A DNA stretch of 49,398 nt, taken from positions 1 through 49,398 of the forward strand of contig CAIMDZ010000206.1 in NCBI GenBank assembly GCA_903839875.1, written 5' to 3'. Below, piece by piece: positions 9,071-47,634 of the stretch. How positions within the stretch are numbered: position 1 is the stretch's first letter; each line of letters starts with the position of its first letter. A program made the translations under genes and the position numbers. The DNA is from an uncultured Bacteroidota bacterium. GTDB taxonomy: Bacteria; Bacteroidota; Bacteroidia; Chitinophagales; Chitinophagaceae. Under the pieces are notes generated by a model. That model was given only the letters and a program-made list of their open reading frames with translations, was not told the DNA's origin and made no database searches.

Positions 9071-9607
9071 TTATTTACCGTCCTTTTGCTGGAAGCCGAT
9101 CGGTTCTATTGGCCTGTCGTGGTACTTTATGAACTGGTCAAGATAATAAAACACAGTCTCTATATCTCCGCCCTGGGCCGCCAGTTCCTTTTCTACCTTT
9201 TCCATCCGCAGCAATAAATCTTTATTGGCCATTACTACCTCCTGCATTTTAGTAAATACTCTTATAATGCGGATATTTACATTTATTGCTACTTCGCTAT
9301 TGAGTACGCTTGATAACATTGCTACCCCCTGTTCCGTAAATGCATATGGTAGATATCGAGTACCACCCCAACTTGAGGTTTCAATTTGAAACCTCAAGTT
9401 ATCAAATTCCTCCCTTGTTAACTGAAACATGAAATCGTCCGGAAAACGCATCAGGTTACGCCTCACCCTCAGATTCAAGGATTTCGTTGGTACATCATAA
9501 AGTTCTGCCAGATCGCTATCCAGCATCACTCGACACCCACGGATATGAAGTATCTTGTTGATGATATTTTCCTCTGGAATTATTTGAATGTGAGTTGTTT
9601 TACCCAT
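9071..9607 (-). CDS. ORF6N domain protein (phage antirepressor-like, DNA-binding)
   Basis: The protein has 178 residues. The ORF6N domain covers about residues 10-115: IIHKILHIRG-like start (IINKILHIRGCRVMLDSDL), AELYDVPTKSLNLRVRRN, RFPDDFMFQLTREEF and LPYAFTEQGVAMLSSVLNS. This family is found in phages and as orphan genes in Bacteroidota and is thought to bind DNA. The usual LRSQ(I/F)VTS segment is LRFQIETS here, and its codons form a perfect 31-bp palindrome at 9370-9400. The C-terminal 60 residues are a helical extension (LLLRMEKVEKELAAQGGDIETVFYYLDQFI). A -7 element TATATTTG (9627-9634) and a second related palindrome (9639-9667) lie just upstream, the right place for self-regulation. Confidence 0.9.
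   Translation of the reverse strand: MGKTTHIQIIPEENIINKILHIRGCRVMLDSDLAELYDVPTKSLNLRVRRNLMRFPDDFMFQLTREEFDNLRFQIETSSWGGTRYLPYAFTEQGVAMLSSVLNSEVAINVNIRIIRVFTKMQEVVMANKDLLLRMEKVEKELAAQGGDIETVFYYLDQFIKYHDRPIEPIGFQQKDGK
9370..9400. repeat. Perfect 31-bp palindrome inside the ORF6N gene
   Basis: Two 15-bp arms around one central base. The inner 17 bp read GGTTTCAAATTGAAACC on the coding strand, in frame GG|TTT|CAA|ATT|GAA|ACC (Phe-Gln-Ile-Glu-Thr). It resembles the palindrome upstream of this gene (9639-9667) and the one inside the Bro-N gene (18453-18477). Confidence 0.95.
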
Positions 9608-9626
9608 AACAATTCAATGGTTATTG

Positions 9627-9634
9627 CAAATATA
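9627..9634 (-). promoter_or_regulatory. -7 promoter element (TATATTTG) of the ORF6N gene
   Basis: Perfect TAnnTTTG match on the minus strand, 19 nt before the ATG. The 29-bp palindrome 9639-9667 begins five bases farther upstream and so covers the -33 region, where a repressor would block RNA polymerase. Confidence 0.55.
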
Positions 9635-9638
9635 TGAG

Positions 9639-9667
9639 TTTTGAGGTCACAAATTGTGACCTCAAAA
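9639..9667. promoter_or_regulatory. Perfect 29-bp palindrome overlapping the ORF6N promoter
   Basis: Two 14-bp arms around one base; the inner 17 bp are GGTCACAAATTGTGACC. It sits over the -33 region of the ORF6N promoter, so it could be an operator. The same bases translate as LRSQIVTS on one strand and LRSQFVTS on the other, the conserved ORF6N peptide, and the flanking bases match the gene, so it is also the edge of an ORF6N remnant. Confidence 0.75.
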
Positions 9668-9706
9668 GATTCGCCATTCCTCATTGCTTAACTGGAACAT
9701 CAACAA
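9639..9706 (-). pseudogene. Decayed ORF6N gene fragment
   Basis: Read on the minus strand, this stretch gives MFQLSNEEW, then a frame change, then LLRSQFVTSK, which parallels FMFQLTREEFDNLRFQIETSS of the intact ORF6N gene next door. At DNA level ATTCCTC, TTAACTG and AACAT recur in the same order and spacing, with 10 versus 8 bases between CTCAA and ATTCCTC, which breaks the frame. Similarity stops exactly where the palindrome ends (9639). The rest of the copy is not recognisable on either side. Either a second ORF6N gene stood here, or a fragment was copied in through the palindrome. Confidence 0.65.
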
Positions 9707-9886
9707 TTTCATTGATTTCAGTACTCACCCGGCACCTGATCATCAACCCTTTTTCATTCCCAGTCAAAAAAATGTTGGTATGTCATGTGGGGTAACACAT
9801 ATTTTGTGGGTAACTCATTTTCTAAATCGGCTGAAATGCTTTACTGTGGCTTATATTATTAAAAATCGTTTTTCTCATTCTTTCCC

Positions 9887-9904
9887 TCCCGATAGCCATC
9901 GGGA
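9887..9904. repeat. Dispersed palindrome TCCCGATAGCyATCGGGA, copy 1
   Basis: Eighteen bases, one mismatch from a perfect palindrome. The perfect version is at 18023-18040. I recall this word as common between genes of many Bacteroidota. In this window both copies lie beside the two antirepressor-like genes. Confidence 0.7.
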
Positions 9905-10077
9905 TTACCACATAAAATTATCCACAATTTCATTGAACTATTTTCGGCATTAATCTTCATTTTAGTTTTACCGTGCTAACAATGTGTCACCCCTTTTTGA
10001 TTTTAGTTACCCCATAGATTTTGGTTATAGGCGTGAGGGGAAGTTTTAGTGAAAAATTAATTTGCCTAAATAAACGT

Positions 10078-10172
10078 GAATGTTTCAATTCTCCAGTAAA
10101 AATGAAAAACATTGCAATGTGATATTTTCATTTTTTTATTTGTCGAAATCATTGGGAATGTTTCAATTCTCC
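10078..10172 (+). repeat. 17-bp direct repeat pair around an inverted repeat
   Basis: GAATGTTTCAATTCTCC occurs at 10078-10094 and 10156-10172, 78 bp apart. Between them AAAAATGAAAA (10098-10108) is mirrored by TTTTCATTTTT (10125-10135), enclosing the palindrome ACATTGCAATGT. The order repeat, hairpin, repeat suggests a small inserted element. Confidence 0.6.
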
Positions 10173-10473
10173 CGGACAAATAATGGTATTATTTTGAAAG
10201 TTTCTCCTATGGAAACATTGAAAAGTATATAGAAGAAATTGCAATAACTTCTGTTCTTGTGGGATTGTTACAAAAGTACAACATACTTTTCAAATAAACA
10301 AATATAATATGCATGATAGTACAGTTTTGTGTCTATGATAGAAAGTTTTTTGAGGGCTAAACTATTTAGGAACAATTGGTTAGGTATTATGAAGTAGGGG
10401 AAATGAGGAAGTGATTAGGTGGGAGTCAATAGCCAATGAACAGTTTGACTTATGCGAGTTGTCCTGCGCGAGC

Positions 10474-10517
10474 CTGCCTGTAGGCAGACACGGTCGTTGG
10501 TGGAGAACACCAACGAC
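10474..10517. repeat. Two adjacent intergenic hairpins
   Basis: CTGCC-TGTA-GGCAG (10474-10487) is followed by GTCGTTGGTG-GAGAA-CACCAACGAC (10493-10517). Both words are of the dispersed hairpin kind that I associate with Bacteroidota intergenic DNA. Confidence 0.65.
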
Positions 10518-10604
10518 GGAGAAAATCAGACCAAGGTCCCCAGCCGAAATCCTATTCCCCAGTGAAGTCCCGGCACAAGGTCCCGATTTTTCAGCGGGAG
10601 GGAT

Positions 10605-10829
10605 TTAGGGTTGCACCTTTATCACCTTCACCGGGCAGGCATTCGCCACCCGCACATTTATTTCATCCTCGCCGGGTGAAACACGCAGTATGTGCAGGTT
10701 CTTCTTTTTGATGCCGCCTACAAGGGTTGCCTTGCCATCGGTGGTGGACATGCGCCACCGCACAGGCCACATCTCGAAACACACGTTGCAGCCTATGCAC
10801 TTGTCACGGTAGTGGATCAGCGTCGGCAT
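10605..10829 (-). CDS. Small [4Fe-4S] ferredoxin
   Basis: The protein has 74 residues. It carries one cluster-binding set: Cys11, Cys14 and Cys17 in CIGCNVC and the distant Cys65 in ANACPVKVI, as in single-cluster ferredoxins. The usual second cluster is absent. It begins inside the last 26 bases of the upstream U32 gene, in another frame, so the two are translationally linked and the ferredoxin is the likely electron donor to the U32 protein. Residues 20-60 are a beta-rich spacer. The ATG at 10829 is the only methionine before the cysteines. Confidence 0.85.
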   Translation of the reverse strand: MPTLIHYRDKCIGCNVCFEMWPVRWRMSTTDGKATLVGGIKKKNLHILRVSPGEDEINVRVANACPVKVIKVQP

Positions 10830-12066
10830 ATTCGGTGGGGATGAGTTTGTATAGTTTGTCGGTGGGGCGTATGTGGGCGCTGAAGGGGATGGTGAAGTTG
10901 AAGCCCTGTTTAACTATCTCCACCGGGCCGTTGTCCACATGAATGGTTTCCACCACCTGGCGAACAATACCTGTGACCGGGCCTATCACCAGCACCTCGT
11001 CGCCTACTTTTAGTTTGCCGCTTTCCAGTTTGAATTCGGCGACTTTTAGTTTGGGGTAGTAGCGCACGCCTTGTGCCAGGTACACTTTTTTCTGGGTGGC
11101 TTTCGATCCGTCGGTCTCGTTCCATTCACCCAGCTTGCGGCCCAGGTAGTAGCCCTCCCAGAATCCGCGGTTGAAGACGGTGGCCAGTTCTTTTCTCCAG
11201 CGGGCAATGTTTTCAGCAGTGTAGGCGCCTTCATCAATCGCGGCAAGCGCTTCTTTATACACCCGCACTGTTTCAAATACATAATCGGCAGTGCGGCCGC
11301 GGCCTTCTATTTTTAAAACAGATATGCCGGTTGCCGCAATTTTGTCGAGTATATCAATAGTACACAGGTCCTTAGCCGACATGATATACTCGTTATCAAT
11401 CTCCAGTTCCTGCTGGCTGTCCTGGTCTATGACGGTGTATTTGTGGCGGCAGTTTTGTATGCAAGCGCCGCGATTGGCAGAGGAGTTGTTGCTGTGCAGG
11501 CTCAGGTAGCACTTGCCCGATATGGCCATGCACAATGCGCCGTGCCCGAAGATTTCTATCTTCACCAGTTCGCCCGACGGGCCACGCACATCATGCCTTT
11601 CGATGCCGTGGGTTATGGCCTCTACCTGCTTCAGTGTCAGTTCGCGTGAGAGGACGATGAGGTCGGCGAAGGTGGAGAAGAACTTTACAGAGTCGAGGTT
11701 GGATACATTGGTCTGTGTGCTTATGTGCACCGGCATTCCCTGCCTGCGGCACTCCATGATGACTGCGAAGTCGCTGGCTATAATGGCATCTACACCTGCC
11801 TCTTTACTGGCGGTTATAATTTCGGTAAACAGGTTTTTGTCGTAGTCGTAAACGGTGGTATTCAGCGTGAGGTATTTGCGGATGTTGTGTTCATCGCATT
11901 TTGTGGCGACTGTGGCGATATCATCAATGGTGAACGCCCCGGCGGATTTCACACGCATGTTAAGTTGCTCTACGCCAAAGTAGATGGCATCGGCGCCTGC
12001 CTGCACTGCGGCGGCCAGGCTCTCAAAGGAGCCGACGGGTGCAAGTATTTTTATTTTTGTAGCCAT
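10804..12066 (-). CDS. U32 family protein (RNA hydroxylation type)
   Basis: The protein has 420 residues. It begins with the U32 signature KIKILAPVGSFESLAAAVQAGADAIYFGVEQLNMR, a TIM-barrel-like N-terminal domain, and has the family's four-cysteine set: Cys179, Cys186, Cys202 and Cys206 (GHGALCMAISGKCYLS...RGACIQNCR). The C-terminal beta domain spans about 320-410. U32 proteins were once called peptidases; studied members (RlhA, TrhP, UbiU/UbiV) are oxygen-independent hydroxylases of 23S rRNA, tRNA or ubiquinone precursors that depend on Fe-S clusters. The length and the single U32 unit fit TrhP best, but this cannot be decided here. The downstream overlapping ferredoxin supports a redox reaction rather than proteolysis. 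Confidence 0.87.
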   Translation of the reverse strand: MATKIKILAPVGSFESLAAAVQAGADAIYFGVEQLNMRVKSAGAFTIDDIATVATKCDEHNIRKYLTLNTTVYDYDKNLFTEIITASKEAGVDAIIASDFAVIMECRRQGMPVHISTQTNVSNLDSVKFFSTFADLIVLSRELTLKQVEAITHGIERHDVRGPSGELVKIEIFGHGALCMAISGKCYLSLHSNNSSANRGACIQNCRHKYTVIDQDSQQELEIDNEYIMSAKDLCTIDILDKIAATGISVLKIEGRGRTADYVFETVRVYKEALAAIDEGAYTAENIARWRKELATVFNRGFWEGYYLGRKLGEWNETDGSKATQKKVYLAQGVRYYPKLKVAEFKLESGKLKVGDEVLVIGPVTGIVRQVVETIHVDNGPVEIVKQGFNFTIPFSAHIRPTDKLYKLIPTEYADADPLP

Positions 12067-12130
12067 GTGGGTAGATCCGTTTTATTCTGTTTACACACCC
12101 CTGACCCCTCACTGACCCTTCCGCCTTCGG

Positions 12131-12156
12131 CACCTTCCCTTGAAAAAGGGAAGGTG
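12131..12156. repeat. Intergenic hairpin with 11-bp arms
   Basis: CACCTTCCCTT-GAAA-AAGGGAAGGTG, followed by TTTT on the plus strand. It lies between two minus-strand genes, where the T-run is on the wrong side for them. Together with the neighbouring word at 12161-12181 it looks like a dispersed repeat. Confidence 0.65.
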
Positions 12157-12160
12157 TTTT

Positions 12161-12181
12161 GGAAGAGTAACCTGTCCTTCG
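12161..12181 (-). repeat. Dispersed 21-bp repeat, copy 1
   Basis: On the minus strand this begins CGAAGGACAGGTTAC and continues with TCTTCC. A copy with one mismatch lies on the plus strand at 47161-47181, 35 kb away, also between genes. Confidence 0.65.
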
Positions 12182-12208
12182 TGAATGAGTTGCGTGAGTT
12201 TTTCAGTT

Positions 12209-12673
12209 TTACTTTTTTCTTTGCTCTTTTCTTATCAGCGCTTGTTCATAATGTAGTTCTTCTTCGGGTGTTTGGGGTTTAATATGCGGCACTTTAGCAG
12301 GCCGGGCATTTTCATCAAGAGCCACGAAAGTGAAGTAGGCTTCATTAATGGGATACGTTTCACGGCTTATGACTTTCCTGGCCCAGGCCTGTACAAATAT
12401 CTCCATAGAGGATTCAAAAGCCCTGGTCATTTTAGCCTTGATCGTAATGATGTCTCCAACTTTAGCCGGCCGTCTGAATAACATCTTATCCAATGATATG
12501 GTTGCCGCTATCCTTTCGGCATGGGTTTGGGCGCATACGGCAGAAGCAGTGTCCATCCACTGTACCAGCTTGCCGCCCTGCAGCATACCCATTGGGTTGG
12601 CGTCATTGGGGTACACCACCTCGGTCATTATGACCTCTGATTCCGAAGGGTATTTTTCGGTTTTAGATTGCAT
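12209..12673 (-). CDS. Acyl-CoA thioesterase, hotdog fold
   Basis: The protein has 154 residues, the length of a single-hotdog acyl-CoA thioesterase of the YciA/BFIT group. Visible family features are the MLQGGKLVQWMDTASAVCAQTHA helix, with the catalytic-region Asp in WMD, the ISLDKMLFRRPAKVGDIITIKAKM strands and the AYFTFVALDENARPAKVP ending. It hydrolyses fatty acyl-CoA in the cytoplasm. Its start overlaps the end of hemN by 11 bases, so both are probably on one transcript. The C terminus is a charged helix (EEELHYEQALIRKEQRKK). Confidence 0.9.
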   Translation of the reverse strand: MQSKTEKYPSESEVIMTEVVYPNDANPMGMLQGGKLVQWMDTASAVCAQTHAERIAATISLDKMLFRRPAKVGDIITIKAKMTRAFESSMEIFVQAWARKVISRETYPINEAYFTFVALDENARPAKVPHIKPQTPEEELHYEQALIRKEQRKK

Positions 12674-14024
12674 TGCTGTAGGTTCTTCCTGATTTTGCCT
12701 GGCTCCTCAATAAATAGAGATCAAATGCGCTGCAGATGTTCCTGATAAAGTTGCGGCCCAATGGGGTGATCTTTATGTCGTTGCCGTTCCATATGATCAG
12801 TTCATCAGCTTCCAGTTTTTTAAGTTCAGGGAAGGTATACTGTCTGAGGACATCCATGTGCAACGGGTTGAGCGTAGTTTTACCATGACAGCTAAGGTCG
12901 AGGATATATTGCCTGAAAGCCGAGTCTTCCTCTGTAAGGAAGTACCCTTTAATTACAGGCAGTATTCCGGAGTTTATCTTCTGGTAATAGTTATGGATTG
13001 TTTTGTCGTTTTGCGCAAAAGCATTGCCTGCGTCGCTGATGGCAGATACGCCAAGGCCGATAAGGATAGTGCTGCGCTGGGTGGTATAACCCATAAAGTT
13101 GCGGAACAGCCAGCCTTCCTGCGAAGCCTTATACAGGTCATCCTCAGGTAAAGCAAAATGGTCCATACCAATATCTTTGTAACCATGCTCCAGGAAAAGC
13201 TCTGTACCTAACTGGTAGAGGCGGATCTTTTCCTCAGCATCGGGAAGGTCGTTTTCATCGAAAAGGCGCTGGCCACGGCTGGTCCACGGCACATGGGCGT
13301 AACTGTAAAATGCCACACGGTCCGGCTTCAGGGAAATAGCCGCCCTGATGGTATTTTCCATCCGCTCCATATTCTGCAAAGGCAATCCGTATATCAGGTC
13401 GAAATTGACAGAGTGGAAACCGATCTCCCGCGCCAGTTCGGTTGCCCTTTTTACATTCTCAAAAGGCTGGATCCGGTTGATGACATGCTGCACCTCGGGG
13501 TTATTATCCTGAACGCCATAGCTGATCCTCCTGAAACCGAGATTGTACAAAGTTTGCAAGTGTTCCCTGGTGGTATTATTCGGATGCCCTTCTATACCAA
13601 ATTCATGATTCTCATGAATAATGCATTTGTTTAAAATGGCAGTCAATAACTTTTCCAGGTTCTGAGGAGAGAAAAAGGTAGGCGTTCCACCACCCAGATG
13701 TAATTCTTTGATGATGGGTTTTTCATCCATCAGATCAACATACATATTCCATTCTTTTAAGATAGCATCAATGTATTCATCCTCTACTGAATGATTTGAG
13801 GTGATCTTCTTATTACAACCGCAATAGGTGCAGAGCGATTCGCAAAACGGAAGATGCAGGTATAGGCTGATGCCGTTTTCTGCATTGCCGATATGGAACT
13901 GTTTCTGAAAACAGGCTTTCCATTGTCCCACATCTATATCATCTTTCCAGTGTGGAACAGTGGGGTAGCTGGTGTACCGGGGCACCGGTACATTATACTT
14001 TTTTAATAAACTAAGACTTACCAT
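12663..14024 (-). CDS. hemN: Oxygen-independent coproporphyrinogen III oxidase
   Basis: The protein has 453 residues, the normal length for HemN. The radical-SAM cluster ligands are Cys61, Cys65 and Cys68 with Cys70 following (PFCESLCTYCGC), the family's CxxxCxxCxC pattern. LHLGGGTPTFFSPQNLEKLL and GIEGHPNNTT follow, then the C-terminal HemN domain (about 360-440). It decarboxylates coproporphyrinogen III to protoporphyrinogen IX without oxygen, supplying heme when oxygen is scarce, which fits its position beside the cbb3 locus. An FNR-like box at 14071-14084 and a near -7 element at 14041-14048 lie upstream, so low-oxygen induction is expected. Confidence 0.95.
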   Translation of the reverse strand: MVSLSLLKKYNVPVPRYTSYPTVPHWKDDIDVGQWKACFQKQFHIGNAENGISLYLHLPFCESLCTYCGCNKKITSNHSVEDEYIDAILKEWNMYVDLMDEKPIIKELHLGGGTPTFFSPQNLEKLLTAILNKCIIHENHEFGIEGHPNNTTREHLQTLYNLGFRRISYGVQDNNPEVQHVINRIQPFENVKRATELAREIGFHSVNFDLIYGLPLQNMERMENTIRAAISLKPDRVAFYSYAHVPWTSRGQRLFDENDLPDAEEKIRLYQLGTELFLEHGYKDIGMDHFALPEDDLYKASQEGWLFRNFMGYTTQRSTILIGLGVSAISDAGNAFAQNDKTIHNYYQKINSGILPVIKGYFLTEEDSAFRQYILDLSCHGKTTLNPLHMDVLRQYTFPELKKLEADELIIWNGNDIKITPLGRNFIRNICSAFDLYLLRSQAKSGRTYSNAI

Positions 14025-14040
14025 AGACGAAATTTGAGTG

Positions 14041-14048
14041 TAAAATTA
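14041..14048 (-). promoter_or_regulatory. Near -7 element of hemN (TAATTTTA)
   Basis: Read on the minus strand it is TAATTTTA, one base off TAnnTTTG. Its centre is exactly 33 bp from the centre of the FNR-like box at 14071-14084 and it leaves about 17 nt to the hemN ATG. Confidence 0.5.
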
Positions 14049-14070
14049 CCCCATATAGTCTTATTATATT

Positions 14071-14084
14071 ATGATATTAGTCAG
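14071..14084. promoter_or_regulatory. FNR-like box upstream of hemN
   Basis: ATGA-TATTAG-TCAG, one base off the palindrome ATGA-N6-TCAT that recurs at four other promoters here. Its position relative to the -7 element matches an activator site near -42. No second box lies 22 bp away. Confidence 0.6.
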
Positions 14085-14130
14085 TAAGTGTAAAAAACCG
14101 TAAAACATGTAATTAATAAATATCCAAAAC

Positions 14131-14144
14131 ATGACCAAAATCAT
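14131..14144. promoter_or_regulatory. FNR-like box (distal) of the ric-like/ccoI operon
   Basis: ATGA-CCAAAA-TCAT, a perfect inverted repeat. It shares ACATGACCAARATCA with the distal box before ccoS (19440). A half site (TCAT at 14163-14166) lies in register 22 bp downstream, and that position is 33 bp from the -7 element at 14189. Confidence 0.7.
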
Positions 14145-14188
14145 ATTTTTCCCTCTTCTTTATCATTTTCTTACATTCTTTTTGAAAA

Positions 14189-14196
14189 TACTTTTG
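14189..14196 (+). promoter_or_regulatory. -7 promoter element (TACTTTTG) of the ric-like/ccoI operon
   Basis: Full match to TAnnTTTG. It leaves 18 nt to the ATG at 14215 and shows that an in-frame ATG at 14131 would lie upstream of the transcript. Confidence 0.6.
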
Positions 14197-14214
14197 CAAA
14201 AGAAAGAGGCTACT

Positions 14215-14763
14215 ATGAATATGTTAAACACCCCGATCAGTGAAGACCTGCAGCCATTTGTAAAAAGACTGGAGCAATCGCATTATAGTGCGATAAATGT
14301 GTTATGTGAAGGTACCAGAAAGCAAGCGAAGAAATTGCAAGAACTTGAAAATCACCAGGCGACTTCCCAATATATTACACTTTGCAACAGGCTGATTGAT
14401 GAAATTCAACACTATATTAAGAACAAAACTGATAATTTTATTCCGTATGTGAATAAATTGAATGAGAAGGAAAGTGAATCGCATGATTGCAATAATTGTA
14501 ACGGAAATTCCTGCAGCCTTCAACACACTGCACAACTGAACGAATTAAAGGAAGCACACGTCCAGATTAAAGATATCTTATACCGTTTGCAGATGGTTTC
14601 GCTGCCGCTTTACTCTGAAACAATTTACCCGGATGTATACAGGATATTGAGAAACCAGATGGCATTACTCGAAAATAACCTTACAGAACTTTTTCTGCTG
14701 GAAGAAACATATCTCATCCCGAAAGTGATAGAATTACAAAAAAGTATTCATGCCCTTGGTTAG
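14215..14763 (+). CDS. Divergent Ric/hemerythrin-like protein with degenerate iron ligands
   Basis: The protein has 182 residues from the ATG at 14215. An earlier in-frame ATG at 14131 falls inside the FNR-like box and upstream of the -7 element, so it is rejected. The all-helical sequence parallels Ric/YtfE/ScdA di-iron proteins that repair Fe-S clusters after nitric oxide damage: HYIKNKTDNFIPYV resembles the H...EE..LFP helix, EAHVQIKDILYRLQ the second, and LTELFLLEETYLIPKVIEL the closing HI.LEN..LFPRA helix. The closing-helix histidine is replaced by Leu, so a normal di-iron site is doubtful. A Cys-rich insert (HDCNNCNGNSC) lies about residue 112. It ends 14 bases inside ccoI. The assignment is from pattern reading only. 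Confidence 0.6.
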   Translation: MNMLNTPISEDLQPFVKRLEQSHYSAINVLCEGTRKQAKKLQELENHQATSQYITLCNRLIDEIQHYIKNKTDNFIPYVNKLNEKESESHDCNNCNGNSCSLQHTAQLNELKEAHVQIKDILYRLQMVSLPLYSETIYPDVYRILRNQMALLENNLTELFLLEETYLIPKVIELQKSIHALG

Positions 14764-17206
14764 TGAAATGCCCACCGAATATATTGGTAAGGTAATTAAG
14801 GAGCAAACTTTATGCTACCATTGCGGTACCCCATGCATAACTAATACCATTATTACTGAAGATAAAGTATTTTGCTGTGAAGGTTGCCAACTGGTATATG
14901 AAATTATAAATGAAAATGGGTTGTGCGATTATTATAAGTTACAGTCCCACCCCGGTATTTCGCAGATAAAAGCACTTCGTTCAGATAAATATGCCTACCT
15001 GGATAATGAAGAAATAGCAAAGCAACTTTATAAGTTTACCAATGGCGATTATACAATCGTTACCTTTTACATACCGGGTGTGCATTGCAGCTCGTGCATG
15101 TGGCTGCTGGAGCACCTGCACAAAGTGAACGGCAATATCATAGAAAGCCGGCTGAATTTTACTACAAAGGAAGTTACCATTCACTTTTCGAAAAGCAAAG
15201 TGAGCCTTCGCAAGATAGTGGAGTTGCTTACTACTATTGGGTATGAGCCCTATATAAGCCTGGATGAGGCCAACAAGAAAAAAGCAAAGAACTACAATAA
15301 ACAAAGGATATACAGACTGGGTGTTGCCGGGTTTTGTTTCGGGAACATAATGATGATGAGTTTCCCGGAATACCTTTCGGCTGTTACCGGCATTGAACAG
15401 CAGTATGTTCATTTGTTCAGGTACTGGAACCTGATCCTCGCTGTACCGGTATTTTTTTATTGCTCCCTGGAATTTTTTACAACGGCATGGAAAGGACTAC
15501 GGCAACGCACGCTGAATATAGATGCGCCGATAGCAATGGCTATCATTATAACCTTTGCCCGCAGTGTGTGGGAGATAGCGTTTAATACAGGTGCGGGTTA
15601 CCTGGACAGTATGAGTGGTATTGTATTCTTCATGCTGGCGGGCAGGGTATTACAGGAGCGCACTTACAAATCGATTGCGTTTAACCGTGATTATAAATCT
15701 TACTTCCCGATAGCAGTGAGTGTTGTGACCGCAGATGGTGTAGTGAGTAAGAAGCTGCAGGATCTGCAGGAAAAAGACGTATTGCAACTGCACAATGACG
15801 AGATAATACCGGCGGATTCAATGGTGCTGAAAGGCAAGCCGCTTATAGATTACAGCTTTGTAACCGGGGAAAGCGAGCCCGTTGCCGTGAAGCTGAATGA
15901 CATGGTTTATGCGGGCGGCAAGCAAGTGGGTGAGCAGATAACAGTGCAAGTAATAAAGCCTGTGGCGGGCAGTTACCTGACGTCGCTGTGGAACCATTAT
16001 GCATTTTCAAAGAACAAGCCGGAGCAGAATAATGCCGACAGTGTACTGCACCTGTTGGGCAAGTATTTTACGTGGGCATTGCTGGGGCTTGCATTGTGTA
16101 CTGCGGTTTACTGGGGCATTCACGATCCGTCGAAGATAATTGTGAGTGTATCGGCGATGCTGATCATTGCTTGTCCTTGTGCGCTGTTGCTTTCAGCAAC
16201 CTTCACCAATGGAAACATATTGAGGATACTGAGTAACAACGGACTATTTATCAGGGATGCAACGGTAATAGAGCAGCTTACGAAAATAGATCATATAGTT
16301 TTTGACAAGACGGGTACGGTGACTGAGAGCATGCATAACAATGTGGTTTACTCGGGTTATGAGCTAAATGAACAAGAGAAAGACATATTGTATAGCGTAA
16401 CGGCGGCGAGCAAACATCCATACAGTAAGATGATAGCAGCGTGGTTAGGCAAGCGCGACCCTGTGGATCTTTCGGGCTGGAAAGAAATACCTGGCAGGGG
16501 TCTGGAAGCTGTTTCGGCGGGGATAAGGATGCTGGTGGGCTCCGGTGAATTTATCTGTTTGCCGAAGGGGAAAATTATTGAAGGTAACGCGGCGGTTTAT
16601 GTGCGTATTGGTGATAAGATTACATCGTTCAATTTCTTTTCCGTATTCCGGAATTCGGTTCCGCAGATAATACCCATGCTGAAACAGGAATATAAATTAT
16701 CGCTTTTGTCGGGAGATAATGACAAGCAGCGGGAAGTACTTGGTGAATTGTTTGGTAATACCAGTGAGCTACTTTTCGCGCAAAAGCCGATAGATAAACT
16801 GCACTATATAGAATCGCTGCAGGCGGAGAGGAAGCATGTGATGATGATAGGCGATGGCCTCAATGATGCGGGAGCGCTGCAGCAGAGCAATGTAGGGATA
16901 ACACTTGCTGACGACATCAATAATTTTACGCCATCGTGCGATGCGATACTGGATGCGAAGAAATTTGCACTGCTGCCGGCGGTACTGAGGCTGGCGAAGG
17001 CTTCGCGGTACATAATAGGTTTGAGTTTTGCGATCTCGCTGGCATACAATATAGTTGGTGAATGGTATGCGATGCGGGGTATGCTGAAGCCGGTATATGC
17101 CGCCATATTGATGCCCTGCAGTACATTGAGTATAGTTCTCATAACATGGGGTTTGAGCAGCCTTATAGCATGGAGGTTGCACCTGAGTCTGAAGGTTAGC
17201 GAATAG
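14750..17206 (+). CDS. ccoI: Copper-transporting P-type ATPase for cbb3 oxidase assembly
   Basis: The protein has 818 residues. An N-terminal Cys-rich segment (CYHCGTPC...CCEGCQLVYE) is followed by a heavy-metal domain with GVHCSSCMW (Cys113, Cys116), six to eight membrane helices, the CPC copper motif (Cys475-Pro-Cys477), the phosphorylated Asp519 in DKTGTVTES, and GDGLNDAGAL. This order is that of CcoI/FixI, which exports copper across the inner membrane for insertion into cbb3 oxidase. The start at 14750 overlaps the preceding gene by 14 bases; an ATG at 14768 just after that gene's stop is also possible. It shares the FNR-like promoter of the ric-like gene. Confidence 0.95.
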   Translation: MPLVSEMPTEYIGKVIKEQTLCYHCGTPCITNTIITEDKVFCCEGCQLVYEIINENGLCDYYKLQSHPGISQIKALRSDKYAYLDNEEIAKQLYKFTNGDYTIVTFYIPGVHCSSCMWLLEHLHKVNGNIIESRLNFTTKEVTIHFSKSKVSLRKIVELLTTIGYEPYISLDEANKKKAKNYNKQRIYRLGVAGFCFGNIMMMSFPEYLSAVTGIEQQYVHLFRYWNLILAVPVFFYCSLEFFTTAWKGLRQRTLNIDAPIAMAIIITFARSVWEIAFNTGAGYLDSMSGIVFFMLAGRVLQERTYKSIAFNRDYKSYFPIAVSVVTADGVVSKKLQDLQEKDVLQLHNDEIIPADSMVLKGKPLIDYSFVTGESEPVAVKLNDMVYAGGKQVGEQITVQVIKPVAGSYLTSLWNHYAFSKNKPEQNNADSVLHLLGKYFTWALLGLALCTAVYWGIHDPSKIIVSVSAMLIIACPCALLLSATFTNGNILRILSNNGLFIRDATVIEQLTKIDHIVFDKTGTVTESMHNNVVYSGYELNEQEKDILYSVTAASKHPYSKMIAAWLGKRDPVDLSGWKEIPGRGLEAVSAGIRMLVGSGEFICLPKGKIIEGNAAVYVRIGDKITSFNFFSVFRNSVPQIIPMLKQEYKLSLLSGDNDKQREVLGELFGNTSELLFAQKPIDKLHYIESLQAERKHVMMIGDGLNDAGALQQSNVGITLADDINNFTPSCDAILDAKKFALLPAVLRLAKASRYIIGLSFAISLAYNIVGEWYAMRGMLKPVYAAILMPCSTLSIVLITWGLSSLIAWRLHLSLKVSE

Positions 17207-17486
17207 TGCCAATTGGGATATTTTCAGCTTCAGTTCCCTGCCCTGCCTGCCGGTAGTTCGGTAGTAGGTAAGTGTCGGTGGGGCCCCGCGATACACAAGG
17301 CTCTGCATTGGGAGAGTCGCCGAGGACAGAAGAATATAAAAATGACAGATGGCTATTTGATTGATTTTGAAAAAGAGTCCGTGGATGCCGCAAATACAGA
17401 CTTCATTTCAACCTTTAACCATATAAAGATTACACAAGCGAGAGACATAAAAACACCATAGTCAAGTAGGGCGTTATTAAAGTGCT

Positions 17487-17786
17487 TTATTGTGCCAATC
17501 CAACCATTAGCAGACTGCCAATTACAATTCCAATTATAGAAGAGGCTAAAAATCCAATTACAGGATGGTTGTTGAGAAATGACAATCTTGAAGGTTTAAT
17601 AGTTATTTTGGATTGATTTTTAGACCAGATTAGGAGTTGAACTCCTACACAAACAAAACCTATTAAAAATAATGTTATAAATTTACTTGTTGTGATTGTG
17701 TGCCTTTCTGATAAAGCAGAGCCAGTCGTAGCAATTGCTATACCTTCAAGCATGGCAATAACAACAAAAGGAAAAATTTTCTTCAT
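17487..17786 (-). CDS. Small membrane protein, unknown
   Basis: The protein has 99 residues with three hydrophobic segments (about 4-24, 36-54 and 76-97). It is not recognised. A -7 element TATATTTG on the minus strand (17809-17816), 22 nt before the ATG, with TTTG 16 bases farther upstream, supports a real promoter. It is transcribed against the cbb3 genes that flank it and sits in the interruption between ccoI and ccoS, so it is likely part of the accessory insert. Confidence 0.55.
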   Translation of the reverse strand: MKKIFPFVVIAMLEGIAIATTGSALSERHTITTSKFITLFLIGFVCVGVQLLIWSKNQSKITIKPSRLSFLNNHPVIGFLASSIIGIVIGSLLMVGLAQ

Positions 17787-17808
17787 AAACTCAACATTAA
17801 TTGGAATA

Positions 17809-17816
17809 CAAATATA
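17809..17816 (-). promoter_or_regulatory. -7 promoter element (TATATTTG) of the small membrane gene
   Basis: Full TAnnTTTG match on the minus strand, 22 nt from the ATG, with a TTTG 16 bases upstream as a candidate -33 element. Confidence 0.5.
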
Positions 17817-18022
17817 GGGTTATTTCAAAAGCCAAAGTTCTTTCACACTAATAGAGCATACTCTAAAATAATGATTTGTTATTTCTAATGGTACTTATTT
17901 GCTATTGCAATATGGAAGGAGTTCTATGATCGAGCGGACTGCATGTGCCTGGGAGATTACTTCGTTGTTAATGTCTATTCAAAGGTCTCAGTGATTTAGT
18001 TCTTCACTGCGCGGCTATGCAT

Positions 18023-18040
18023 CCCGATAGCTATCGGGAC
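18023..18040. repeat. Dispersed palindrome TCCCGATAGCTATCGGGA, copy 2
   Basis: A perfect 18-bp palindrome; copy 1 with one mismatch is at 9887-9904. Confidence 0.75.
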
Positions 18041-18096
18041 TATGCGCTTCGTTCAGAATAACTAATACTATTGGGCTTTTCTCTTGTGGTTGTATG

Positions 18097-18135
18097 AAGA
18101 AATCATTATCCTGCCATACACAATTTATTCTGATA
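18097..18135 (+). repeat. 39-bp direct repeat, left copy
   Basis: It begins AAGAAATCAT and ends AATTTATTCTGATA. It matches the right copy (19174-19212) at 34 of 39 bases with no gaps. The copies lie 1077 bp apart and bracket the Bro-N gene. Confidence 0.8.
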
Positions 18136-18283
18136 CCGGAATACCTTTGCCTGAAAGATACCTATTTATCAAGATAAAAAAGGAATGAAAATACAAAATT
18201 ATTCAACCAATTTTTCTACTTTTCCAAAAAAATATTTACAATCACCAAAATGTATTTCCCAACCAAACATTGTAGACTAAATC

Positions 18284-19111
18284 ATGAACAACATAAAATT
18301 ATTTGAAGAAAAGAATGTTAGAACACTTTGGGACGCAATGCAGGAGAAGTGGTATTTTTCTGTTATTGACGTAGTGGGCATTTTATCGGAAAGTTCTGAC
18401 GCGAGAAATTATTGGAAAGTATTAAAAAGCAGGTTAAAAAAGGAAGGGAGTGAGGTGGTTACAAAATGTAACCAACTGAAAATGCCTTCGGCTGATGGTA
18501 AAAACTACCTTACCGATGTTGCCGATACAGAAACCTTATTACGCATAGTTCAAACTATCCCCTCACCCAAAGCTGAACCTTTCAAACAATGGCTGGCAAA
18601 AGTAGGTTACGAACGTATGCAGGAAATGGCAGACCCTGCACAGAGCCTTGACAGGGCAAGGGAAAACTGGCAAAAACTGGGTCGGAGCGAAAAATGGATA
18701 CAGCAGCGTATGACCGGACAGGAAACCCGCAATAAGCTAACCGATTACTGGAAAGAGGCAGGAGTAAAAGAACAGGATGAATTTGCAATGCTTACCAATA
18801 TCATACACGAGGAATGGACAGGGCTAACTGTAAAGAAGCACAAAGATATAAAGGGACTAAAATCCCAAAACCTGCGCGATCATATGAATGAAGCGGAATT
18901 GATTTTTACAGCTCTTGCTGAGTTATCCACCCGGCAGATAGCAGAAAGCGAACAGGCTAAGGGGCTACCTGAAAATGCCAGGGCAAGTAAAAAAGGTGGG
19001 GCGGTAGCTAAAAATGCACGCCTCGAACTGGAAGCAAAAACAGGTAAAAGCGTTGTTACCGGAGAAAACTTTTTACCTCCTGCAAATGATAAAAGAAGGA
19101 TTGGGCGTTAG
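18284..19111 (+). CDS. Bro-N / DinD-like phage antirepressor-type protein
   Basis: The protein has 275 residues. The N-terminal Bro-N domain (about 1-105) shows IKLFEEKNVRTLWDAMQEKWYFSVIDVVGIL and PKAEPFKQWLAKVGYERMQE. The middle part (WIQQRMTGQETRNKLTDYWKEAGV, EEWTGLTVKKHKDIKGLKSQNLRDHM, AELIFTALAELSTRQIAE) matches the DinD-like group. Such proteins bind DNA and act as antirepressors in phages; the orphan bacterial ones have no settled role. Its codons for VTKCNQ form a palindrome (18453-18477) with the same core as those at the ORF6N locus, but in another frame. It is a stand-alone gene in the gap of the cbb3 cluster, bracketed by 39-bp direct repeats, which points to transfer. Confidence 0.88.
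   Translation: MNNIKLFEEKNVRTLWDAMQEKWYFSVIDVVGILSESSDARNYWKVLKSRLKKEGSEVVTKCNQLKMPSADGKNYLTDVADTETLLRIVQTIPSPKAEPFKQWLAKVGYERMQEMADPAQSLDRARENWQKLGRSEKWIQQRMTGQETRNKLTDYWKEAGVKEQDEFAMLTNIIHEEWTGLTVKKHKDIKGLKSQNLRDHMNEAELIFTALAELSTRQIAESEQAKGLPENARASKKGGAVAKNARLELEAKTGKSVVTGENFLPPANDKRRIGR
18453..18477. repeat. Palindrome inside the Bro-N gene
   Basis: Eleven-base arms with one mismatch around AAA. The core at 18457-18473 is GGTTACAAAATGTAACC, read G|GTT|ACA|AAA|TGT|AAC|C. It matches the ORF6N gene core at 14 of 17 bases. Confidence 0.9.
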
Positions 19112-34115: not shown

Positions 34116-34261
34116 TAGATAGGTCGCTATTCCGCAAAAATTAGATTATCACTATTGTTTAAGGTTATATAGGCTGCCTGTATAACCTTAATCATTTATG
34201 GAAATGATGGGAGAAAATAGTCGTAATTTTGCAGTTGTTAAGCATTGTCATTAACTTAGGG

Positions 34262-42453: not shown

Positions 42454-42492
42454 AAAAAGGGAAAGGGGCGACATTCGCTCCTTTCCCTTTTT
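42454..42492. terminator. Bidirectional Rho-independent terminator
   Basis: AAAAAGGGAAAGG (42454-42466) pairs with CCTTTCCCTTTTT (42480-42492), extended inward by GCG/CGC around ACATT. It serves both the M49 gene and the converging SBBP gene. Confidence 0.88.
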
Positions 42493-47325: not shown

Positions 47326-47634
47326 AAACCGGAAGAAGTTTTTCGAAATCCATATGTGCTTGAATTTCTTGAATTGGAAGAAAAACATGAGTACAATGAG
47401 TCGGATTTAGAACAGGCAATTATCAATCATCTGCAATCCTTTTTGCTTGAATTAGGCCGGGGATTCTGTTTTGAAGCGCGTCAAAGAAGAATAACTTTTG
47501 ATAATAAACATTACCATATTGATCTTGCATTCTACCATCGCCTGTTGATGTGCCATGTATTAATTGACCAGAAGCTTGTTGAATTTCTGCCTACTCGACT
47601 GAAGAACACCAACAACGGCGGAGGGCGTTTATAG
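47326..47634 (+). pseudogene. YhcG-type (DUF1016) PD-(D/E)XK nuclease remnant
   Basis: The readable part is PEEVFRNPYVLEFLELEE, ESDLEQAIINHLQSFLLELG, GFCFEARQRRITFDNKHYHIDLAFYH and CHVLIDQKLVEF, the first half of the DUF1016 nuclease domain. The full family is about 350 residues; here the N-terminal domain is gone (an in-frame TAA lies at 47323-47325) and the sequence after VEF is not family-like before the stop. The lysine motif expected as IDLK reads IDQK. It is a truncated and probably dead copy, unrelated in function to the neighbouring etf and nor genes. Confidence 0.8.

What the first reader, a model, noticed from the sequence alone, without database searches (positions are those of the whole stretch)
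9370..18477. The same DNA palindrome is built into two unrelated antirepressor-like genes in different reading frames
The ORF6N gene (9370-9400) and the Bro-N/DinD-like gene (18453-18477) each contain a strong palindrome in coding sequence. Their 17-bp cores are GGTTTCAAATTGAAACC and GGTTACAAAATGTAACC, 14 of 17 bases identical. The upstream ORF6N remnant has GGTCACAAATTGTGACC, also 14 of 17 identical to the Bro-N core. The ORF6N gene reads it GG|TTT|CAA|ATT, the Bro-N gene G|GTT|ACA|AAA, so the encoded peptides differ (FQIET versus VTKCN) while the DNA is kept. From memory, the usual family peptides (LRSQIVTS in ORF6N, QLVTNCNQLK in DinD-like proteins) can also be spelled by near-perfect palindromes. 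Possible meanings: the binding site of these DNA-binding proteins carried inside their own genes, a recombination or copying site that lets such genes spread, or a palindromic element inserted into both families.
Basis: partly seen in the sequence, partly recalled or inferred. Interest (0 to 1): 0.85.

Follow-up and report, generated by a model that had tools for sequence, protein, structure and literature searches.

The report
Genes carrying their own protein's binding site
Several families of bacterial DNA-binding genes carry, inside their own coding sequence, a DNA palindrome whose letters match the part of the encoded protein that reads DNA, which suggests that each protein binds and controls its own gene wherever that gene lands.

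Summary
The window's ORF6N gene (palindrome 9370-9400), its upstream ORF6N remnant (9639-9667) and the Bro-N/DinD-like gene (18456-18474) each hold a palindrome. Most relatives keep one at the same protein position, mostly in one frame per family (ORF6N 0, Bro-N/DinD 1). RhuM (frame 2) and YhcG/DUF1016 genes (frame 0) have it too. Keeping the protein and redrawing synonymous codons does not reproduce it (ORF6N score 10.2 against 2.7). Arms change in a compensated way, with no G·U excess, so the constraint acts on DNA.

Outside the palindrome, the protein columns that covary best with its inner arms lie in the helix-turn-helix. ORF6N shows a code at residue 46: arm TCA with Q 79/79, TCG with E 66/66, GC with R 28/29. 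Helix residues predict the inner arm from relatives under 60% identical in 164/186 ORF6N, 59/64 RhuM and 18/18 DinD cases. ORF6N genes with a weak internal palindrome more often have one upstream (8/14 against 25/112); upstream arms fit the own helix in 19/29.

Best reading: a self-operator inside the gene. Binding and repression are untested.

The parts
9071..9607 (-). ORF6N gene (178 aa, P0001); modelled helices 30-37 and 41-50 taken as the helix-turn-helix; the palindrome encodes residues 70-79 (NLRFQIETSS)
   Evidence: Pfam PF10543 2.4e-34; translation; model helices
9370..9400 (-). 31-bp perfect palindrome inside the ORF6N gene (proposed self-operator); arm AACTTGAGGTTTC
   Evidence: homologues
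9639..9667 (-). 29-bp palindrome in an ORF6N remnant, centre 46 bp upstream of the intact gene's start (position of an upstream operator)
   Evidence: remnant reading MFQLSNEEW.. seen by eye
18284..19111 (+). Bro-N/DinD-like gene (275 aa, P0002)
   Evidence: Pfam Bro-N 1.1e-9; translation
18456..18474 (+). 19-bp palindrome TGGTTACAAAATGTAACCA in the Bro-N/DinD-like gene; arm GTTA with residues N42/K45/V46, the commonest combination for that arm (8 of 17)
18407..18421 (+). codons of residues 42-46 of P0002, which include the three columns that covary best with the palindrome arm (42, 46, 45)
   Evidence: coordinates by arithmetic from the start codon
9470..9481 (-). codons of residues 43-46 of P0001, which include the two columns that covary best with ORF6N inner arms (46, 43); here S43 and L46 with arm TTT, outside the common classes
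   Evidence: coordinates by arithmetic from the start codon

Best explanation
Each palindrome is the binding site of the protein that its own gene encodes. A homodimer of a helix-turn-helix/winged-helix protein reads the two equal half-sites. Residues of the recognition helix (ORF6N 43 and 46; RhuM 47 and 51; DinD 42, 45, 46) read bases about 4-7 from the centre on each arm. Because both half-sites meet the same residues, both arms change together when specificity changes, and the centre is freer. The site usually lies inside the coding sequence, under the codons that follow the helix-turn-helix; in ORF6N it is sometimes found upstream, usually 25-75 bp before the start codon. Likely outcome: autorepression, by a roadblock inside the gene or by operator binding upstream, in a form that travels with a mobile gene that can sit in other operons. 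Shown by sequence: DNA-level symmetry, helix-to-arm code, position, upstream copies. Inferred: dimer binding, repression, the portability argument.
For: Synonymous-codon null rejected: ORF6N mean 10.2 vs 2.69 (146 windows, 125 at or above all 200 nulls), RhuM 8.85 vs 3.09 (103; 77), DinD 8.80 vs 2.58 (65; 58). Compensated pairs: ORF6N k=4 119/124 vs 40 expected, RhuM k=5 93/103 vs 30, DinD k=5 56/64 vs 21. No excess of G-T over A-C mismatches: 26 vs 47, 29 vs 33, 24 vs 29. Covariation with the inner arms: RhuM's seven top columns of 113 lie in the HTH; ORF6N L46 0.657 and S43 0.416, next 0.096; DinD N42, V46, K45. Code and prediction of the inner arm from relatives under 60% identical: ORF6N 164/186 vs majority-class baseline 69, RhuM 59/64 vs 6, DinD 18/18 vs 10. 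ORF6N and RhuM share partners: E with CG, R with GC, K with TTC. Upstream palindromes: 33/126 ORF6N genes vs 10/481 control windows, no filter on core; more often when the internal one is weak, 8/14 vs 25/112, p=0.009. Upstream and own internal arms are alike beyond shuffling (27 pairs, p=0.0002). Upstream arms fit the own residue-46 code 19/29 vs 9.5 shuffled, none of 5000 shuffles as high; among genes with internal score 5 or less, 7 of the 8 sites tested (6 of 7 genes) fit. Both models have a helix-turn-helix-like pair of helices before the palindrome-encoded segment; the ORF6N model resembles the Dachshund/Ski DNA-binding domain (prob 0.96, E 0.13).
Against: No binding or expression data. 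Flavobacterium 3' arrays do not fit the own code (33/72 vs 30.8 shuffled, p=0.34), so not every such palindrome is an operator of its neighbour. Ten of 29 upstream sites miss the code. One more weak-internal gene (L187) has an upstream palindrome that my core filter dropped; its arm TCA would not fit its helix (R43/E46). The code is clear only near the centre: ORF6N residues 42-43 predict bases 7-8 worse than the majority class (86/170 vs 96/170), RhuM residues 46 and 50 predict bases 8-10 only slightly better (32/72 vs 24/72), and outer ORF6N arms do not covary with the HTH (p=0.74). The window's own ORF6N (S43/L46, arm TTT) is outside the common classes and its upstream copy has arm TCA. YhcG shows no clear helix code (49 sequences). 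RhuM and DinD seldom have upstream palindromes (5/84 and 3/60) and no significant link with a weak internal one. The columns used for prediction were chosen on the same data.
Confidence: 0.82

Rival explanations
1. Self-perpetuating coding palindromes: hairpins form during replication and template switching copies one arm onto the other, so symmetry persists without function.
For: Both-arm changes outnumber single ones in close pairs (19 ORF6N pairs: 11 compensated, 5 single, 3 changed on both sides but unpaired). Some extragenic palindromes extend symmetrically into local flank (L123, L487). The mechanism is described for yeast coding genes (PMC8604942, abstract) and proposed for Nematomorpha mitochondria (PMC6649704, abstract and discussion).
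Against: Does not predict that the helix of the same protein goes with the arm sequence or that upstream palindromes fit the helix. Extragenic copies beside the gene are less symmetric than in-gene ones: asymmetric outer arms 32/103 vs 1/58, though co-inheritance of both sides of the module could also give this.
Confidence: 0.08
2. Recombination hotspot: the palindrome is kept because hairpin cleavage or homology at its core lets the specificity module be swapped between genes.
For: In 90 Flavobacterium ORF6N genes the module type changes at least 29 times on the backbone tree, with well-supported sister pairs of different type; close pairs of different type differ most in the outer arms (identity 0.44 and 0.33) while the core stays alike (0.81); ten hybrid extragenic palindromes join arms of different types at the core.
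Against: Recombination does not need the arm to match the protein's helix. No hybrid was found inside a gene (58 examined). Module exchange can be a consequence of selection on specificity.
Confidence: 0.06
3. mRNA hairpin in the coding sequence (translation pausing, RNA processing or attenuation).
For: The arms would form a stable hairpin with a 3-nt loop in mRNA (inference from sequence; not folded here).
Against: G-U pairs are not preferred over A-C: G-T 26 vs A-C 47 in ORF6N, 29 vs 33 in RhuM, 24 vs 29 in DinD. Does not explain the recognition-helix code.
Confidence: 0.02
4. A mobile REP-like or Rickettsia-type palindromic element that inserted into several gene families.
For: Tandem palindromes about 34-42 bp apart inside or beside genes. 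Five of 29 loci found by pattern in 296 genomes had no ORF6N match, and in viral contigs only 6 of 206 sites of two exact 15-mers lay within 100 bp of an ORF6N or DinD match, some unlinked ones with long arms (e.g. L320, L393).
Against: Core sequence differs between families and within them; the position is fixed in each family; the own genome has only three symmetric copies of the ORF6N/Bro-N form, all in these genes or the remnant; 400 kb of a same-family genome show no dispersed family. Does not explain the helix code.
Confidence: 0.02

Closest known systems
Autoregulatory operators of homodimeric helix-turn-helix repressors, including operators inside coding sequence (general knowledge, recalled)
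   Same: Two-fold symmetric site, half-sites read by the same recognition helix, site and helix co-vary among paralogues, site in or near the regulator's own gene
   Different: Here the site lies under the codons that follow the regulator's own helix-turn-helix, as a family-wide trait in several families and phyla; binding is not yet shown
Coding palindromes in mitochondrial genes of Nematomorpha (PMC6649704; abstract and discussion read)
   Same: Perfect inverted repeats inside protein-coding genes that keep coding for functional protein
   Different: Those are scattered, gained and lost, up to 284 bp, without known function; here the position is fixed by family and the sequence follows the protein's DNA-reading helix
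Rickettsia palindromic elements (one passage in PMC4316617 citing Ogata et al. 2000; the Ogata papers not read)
   Same: Palindromes in frame inside coding sequence
   Different: RPEs are described there as selfish 100-150-nt elements inserted in intergenic regions, RNAs and coding sequence; these are mostly 19-35 bp and kept at one place per family
Template-switch homogenisation of inverted repeats in yeast coding genes (PMC8604942, abstract)
   Same: Paired changes in both arms, non-synonymous
   Different: A mutational process without functional site; does not predict a helix-to-arm code
DdrC of Deinococcus radiodurans (PDB 8u0g, 7qvb)
   Same: Best structural match of the RhuM model (prob 0.93 and 0.75) and weak sequence match of the DinD profile (E 0.46)
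   Different: Matches are weak (E 0.015 and 0.044); the ddrC gene was not examined

Membership tests
ORF6N domain protein (PF10543) | Match to the Pfam model over its cut-off | tested here: met
   117.9 bits, cut-off 27.8
Bro-N domain protein (PF02498) | Match to the Pfam model over its cut-off | tested here: met
   39.2 bits, cut-off 25.6
Autoregulatory operator of the encoded protein | Two-fold symmetric DNA site kept beyond coding constraint | tested here: met
   synonymous null; pair counts
Autoregulatory operator of the encoded protein | Site sequence tracks the recognition helix of that protein | tested here: met
   three families, inner arms; not for outer ORF6N arms, not clear for YhcG, and the window's own ORF6N lies outside the common classes
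Autoregulatory operator of the encoded protein | Site located in or directly upstream of the regulator's gene | tested here: met
Autoregulatory operator of the encoded protein | Protein binds the site and changes its own transcription | not testable with these tools
   needs gel shift or DAP-seq and a reporter
REP/BIME or Rickettsia palindromic element | Dispersed copies of one sequence family in unrelated loci | tested here: not met
   own genome three symmetric copies; 24 of 29 loci found by pattern in 296 genomes hold an ORF6N match; no dispersed family in 400 kb; unlinked copies exist in viral contigs
Functional mRNA hairpin | G-U pairs tolerated more than A-C | tested here: not met
Template-switch quasi-palindrome | Symmetry equal inside and outside genes, arm changes concerted | tested here: inconclusive
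   in-gene symmetry is stricter, which module co-inheritance could also cause; concerted changes and symmetric extensions are present

The most novel reading that the evidence does not exclude
At least three families of mobile DNA-binding genes (ORF6N, Bro-N/DinD, RhuM), and perhaps the YhcG nuclease, are self-addressed: one stretch of DNA encodes part of the DNA-binding domain and is itself the address that domain reads.
Probability: 0.6. Interest if true: 0.92.

Novelty: new variant of a known kind. Interest (0 to 1): 0.88.

Why it matters
It gives a testable DNA target, from sequence alone, for many orphan ORF6N, Bro-N/DinD and RhuM proteins now annotated as antirepressor-like, virulence or unknown. 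It yields natural recognition codes with over three hundred protein-site pairs here (199, 84 and 55 proteins), useful for learning protein-DNA specificity. It shows coding DNA that must serve as protein and as a symmetric binding site at once, with non-synonymous compensated changes. It suggests how mobile regulators keep control of themselves when they land in foreign operons such as type I restriction loci.

Tried and rejected
RNA hairpin: no G·U excess. Dispersed mobile palindrome: 24 of 29 loci found by pattern in 296 genomes hold an ORF6N match, 5 do not, two of which look like remnants by eye. Silent-cassette model for Flavobacterium 3' arrays: the units seen hold the palindrome with little flank and do not fit the own code. 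Template switching as full account: does not explain the helix code. KilA-N as another carrier: 0 of 7 loci had a comparable internal palindrome, one had a weak one in another place (L602). YhcG helix code: no clear signal in 49 sequences. Profile-profile homology: co-linear but weak for RhuM and DinD (P 0.009), nothing significant for ORF6N with DinD, ORF6N with RhuM or RhuM with YhcG. Solved relatives by sequence: none significant. Failed scripts: repeated in corrected form. misread some genes because the downstream motif matched too early; one search replaced it.

Limits. Helix columns for the code were picked on the data and then used for prediction. The prediction counts loci, near-copies included as test cases, but used only donors under 60% identical; loci with fewer than two such donors were not tested. 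Of 199 ORF6N proteins 13 have rarer arms not listed. ORF6N code set: loci with score 7 or more in frame 0, plus 90 Flavobacterium genes of 94 offered (no score filter), identical aligned proteins counted once. RhuM: 116 loci offered, 112 mapped, 103 unique windows, 84 proteins used (score 7 or more). DinD: 89 offered, 73 mapped, 64 unique windows, 55 proteins used (score 7 or more, frame 1). The window's own genes are among the loci. HTH ranges: RhuM and ORF6N from the models, DinD set by me without a model. YhcG synonymous test: 15 of 30 loci parsed. One search used palindromes with score 5 or more in frame 0, duplicates removed.


Full report
Observation. The window's ORF6N gene contains a perfect 31-bp palindrome and its upstream remnant a 29-bp one; the Bro-N/DinD-like gene contains a 19-bp palindrome with a 3-nt centre. 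In the window's genome the loose core occurs at five places and only the three in these genes and the remnant are symmetric.

Relatives. ORF6N relatives come from the same order, from 80 named genome contigs of several phyla and from 49 viral contigs. Of 158 loci offered 150 were parsed; 142 of these score 5 or more and 131 score 7 or more at the place of LRSQxVTS or nearby. The arms vary and the variation is compensated: at position 4 from the centre 119 of 124 pair (40 expected), at 5 115 (57), at 8 103 (48), at 13 108 (57), and pairing stops after position 15 (set chosen for a score of 5 or more, frame 0). Bro-N/DinD relatives show the same, mostly in frame 1 (50 of 57), sometimes with the core replaced. 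RhuM genes (PF13310) have a palindrome mostly in frame 2 (79 of 82) before the YYNLD motif, also on plasmids of Epsilon-, Gamma- and Alphaproteobacteria (6 of 7 plasmid regions read; the Bacillota one is degenerate) and in the four E. coli regions with a complete gene that were read, two of which carry the same protein. YhcG/DUF1016 nuclease genes have one or more in frame 0 before the nuclease domain (20 of 30 loci by my count; 49 of 61 genes score 6 or more, 42 score 8 or more, which looked at frame 0 only). Seven KilA-N loci showed none comparable.

Not the protein, not the RNA. Redrawing synonymous codons while keeping the protein gives much lower symmetry in ORF6N, RhuM and DinD and in 15 parsed YhcG genes (7.87 against 3.40; 11 of 15 at or above all 100 nulls). 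Mismatches of G·T type are not commoner than A·C, as they would be if an RNA stem were selected. Long palindromes are rare in a same-family genome: 14 scoring 9 or more in 400 kb, 6 inside ORFs.

The code. The protein columns that covary best with the inner palindrome arms, outside the palindrome-encoded residues and after average-product correction, are in the helix-turn-helix in all three families. In ORF6N, of the proteins with arm TCA 79 of 79 have Q at residue 46; with TCG 66 of 66 have E; with AGC or TGC 28 of 29 have R; with TTC 11 of 12 have K. Residue 43 follows: V, A, T, I or S; R; mostly Q; mostly N. Thirteen of the 199 proteins have rarer arms not listed. In RhuM residue 51 is E in 13 of 17 with TCG and 8 of 9 with CCG, R or K in 18 of 18 with TGC, K in 8 of 8 with TTC, and mostly uncharged with CAA or TAA. 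In DinD residues 42, 45 and 46 go together with the four arm bases. Using only relatives under 60% identical, these residues predict the arm in 164/186, 59/64 and 18/18 cases, against 69, 6 and 10 for the majority class. Farther from the centre the code fails or weakens: ORF6N 42-43 for bases 7-8 86/170 against 96/170, RhuM 46 and 50 for bases 8-10 32/72 against 24/72. The residue-base partners (Q with A, E with C, R with G) are usual in protein-DNA contacts (recalled). I conclude that the protein most likely reads the palindrome in its own gene.

Upstream copies. Palindromes of any core also lie 15-130 bp before the start codon in 33 of 126 ORF6N genes against 10 of 481 control windows (a few of the 33 look like other inverted repeats), and more often when the internal palindrome is weak: 8/14 against 25/112, p=0.009. 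In RhuM (5/84) and DinD (3/60) they are rare and show no significant link. Those with the usual core resemble the gene's own internal arms (27 pairs) and fit the own residue-46 code in 19 of 29 tested, 9.5 by shuffling. For genes with internal score 5 or less, 7 of the 8 sites tested fit; one further gene (L187), dropped by the core filter, would not. A Chloroflexota DinD gene without a clear internal palindrome has one at -26, and a Bacillota ORF6N gene has an upstream copy at -29 with the arms of its internal one. The window's remnant palindrome sits at -46, an operator-like place; its arm (TCA) differs from that of the intact gene (TTT), whose helix (S43, L46) is outside the common classes, so whether it serves the intact gene is open.

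Structure. The RhuM model (mean pLDDT 81.7) puts the palindrome-encoded residues in the first strand of a hairpin right after the helix-turn-helix, as in a winged helix; in the ORF6N model (79.8) they are the end of a helix and a loop. Best folds: DdrC for RhuM and the Dachshund/Ski DNA-binding domain for ORF6N, both with weak E-values.

Results that do not fit or go further. In Flavobacterium, ORF6N genes with similar backbones carry different modules (A, B, C); the type changes at least 29 times on the backbone tree, although few columns and many open forks weaken that tree. After the stop codon many of them carry an array of palindromes, often of all three types, with ten hybrid units among 103 extragenic palindromes and none among 58 in-gene ones. 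These arrays do not fit the own helix code (33/72 against 30.8) and remain unexplained. YhcG shows no clear code. Some palindromes with long arms in viral contigs lie away from any ORF6N or DinD match.

Literature. Searches for ORF6N, Bro-N, RhuM, DUF1016/YhcG, KilA-N or DinD together with palindromes, inverted repeats or restriction loci listed no paper that, by title and start of abstract, reports this (listings only, open-licence papers only). The nearest that I read in part are Nematomorpha coding palindromes (PMC6649704, abstract and discussion), yeast template switching (PMC8604942, abstract) and a passage on Rickettsia palindromic elements (PMC4316617).

Verdict. Real, general, and best explained as a self-operator inside the gene. 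The sequence evidence for recognition near the centre is strong; autorepression and portable regulation are inference.

Noticed in passing
L199, L122, L499, L507, L519, L537, L542 and others (Flavobacterium), 0-250 bp after the ORF6N stop codon: Arrays of palindromes of up to three arm types, often about 40 bp apart, some hybrid with arms of different types joined at the core; they do not fit the neighbouring protein's code.
   Followed up: partly
L495/L533, L472/L516, L466/L526, L511/L535: ORF6N sister pairs on the backbone tree with different modules; two pairs aligned show a swapped stretch of roughly 100-190 bp around the palindrome.
   Followed up: yes
L638, L640, L643: RhuM gene overlapping the end of hsdM and followed by hsdS in type I restriction loci on plasmids.
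   Followed up: partly
L796 501-1397: Bro-N/DinD-like gene between cas4 and cas1b of a type I-B CRISPR locus on an Arcobacter plasmid.
   Followed up: no
L601 about position 1376 on the reverse strand: ORF6N-type palindrome about 70 bp before the open frame of a KilA-N gene that has none inside.
   Followed up: no
L320 about 12607 and L393 about 3119: Long ORF6N-type palindromes in viral contigs without an ORF6N or DinD match within 100 bp.
   Followed up: no
window 47335-47595: Partial YhcG_C (DUF1016) match, a family that carries such palindromes.
   Followed up: no
window 9887-9904 and 18022-18039: TCCCGATAGCNATCGGGA palindromes near both genes, a short repeat seen by eye.
   Followed up: no
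window 34159-34191 and 42454-42492: Two other long inverted repeats of the window, terminator-like by eye.
   Followed up: no
L786, L791, L792: E. coli chromosomes carry a rhuM fragment, in two of the three read beside the tRNA-Sec gene; 4442 of 5426 genomes have some match to the query.
   Followed up: partly
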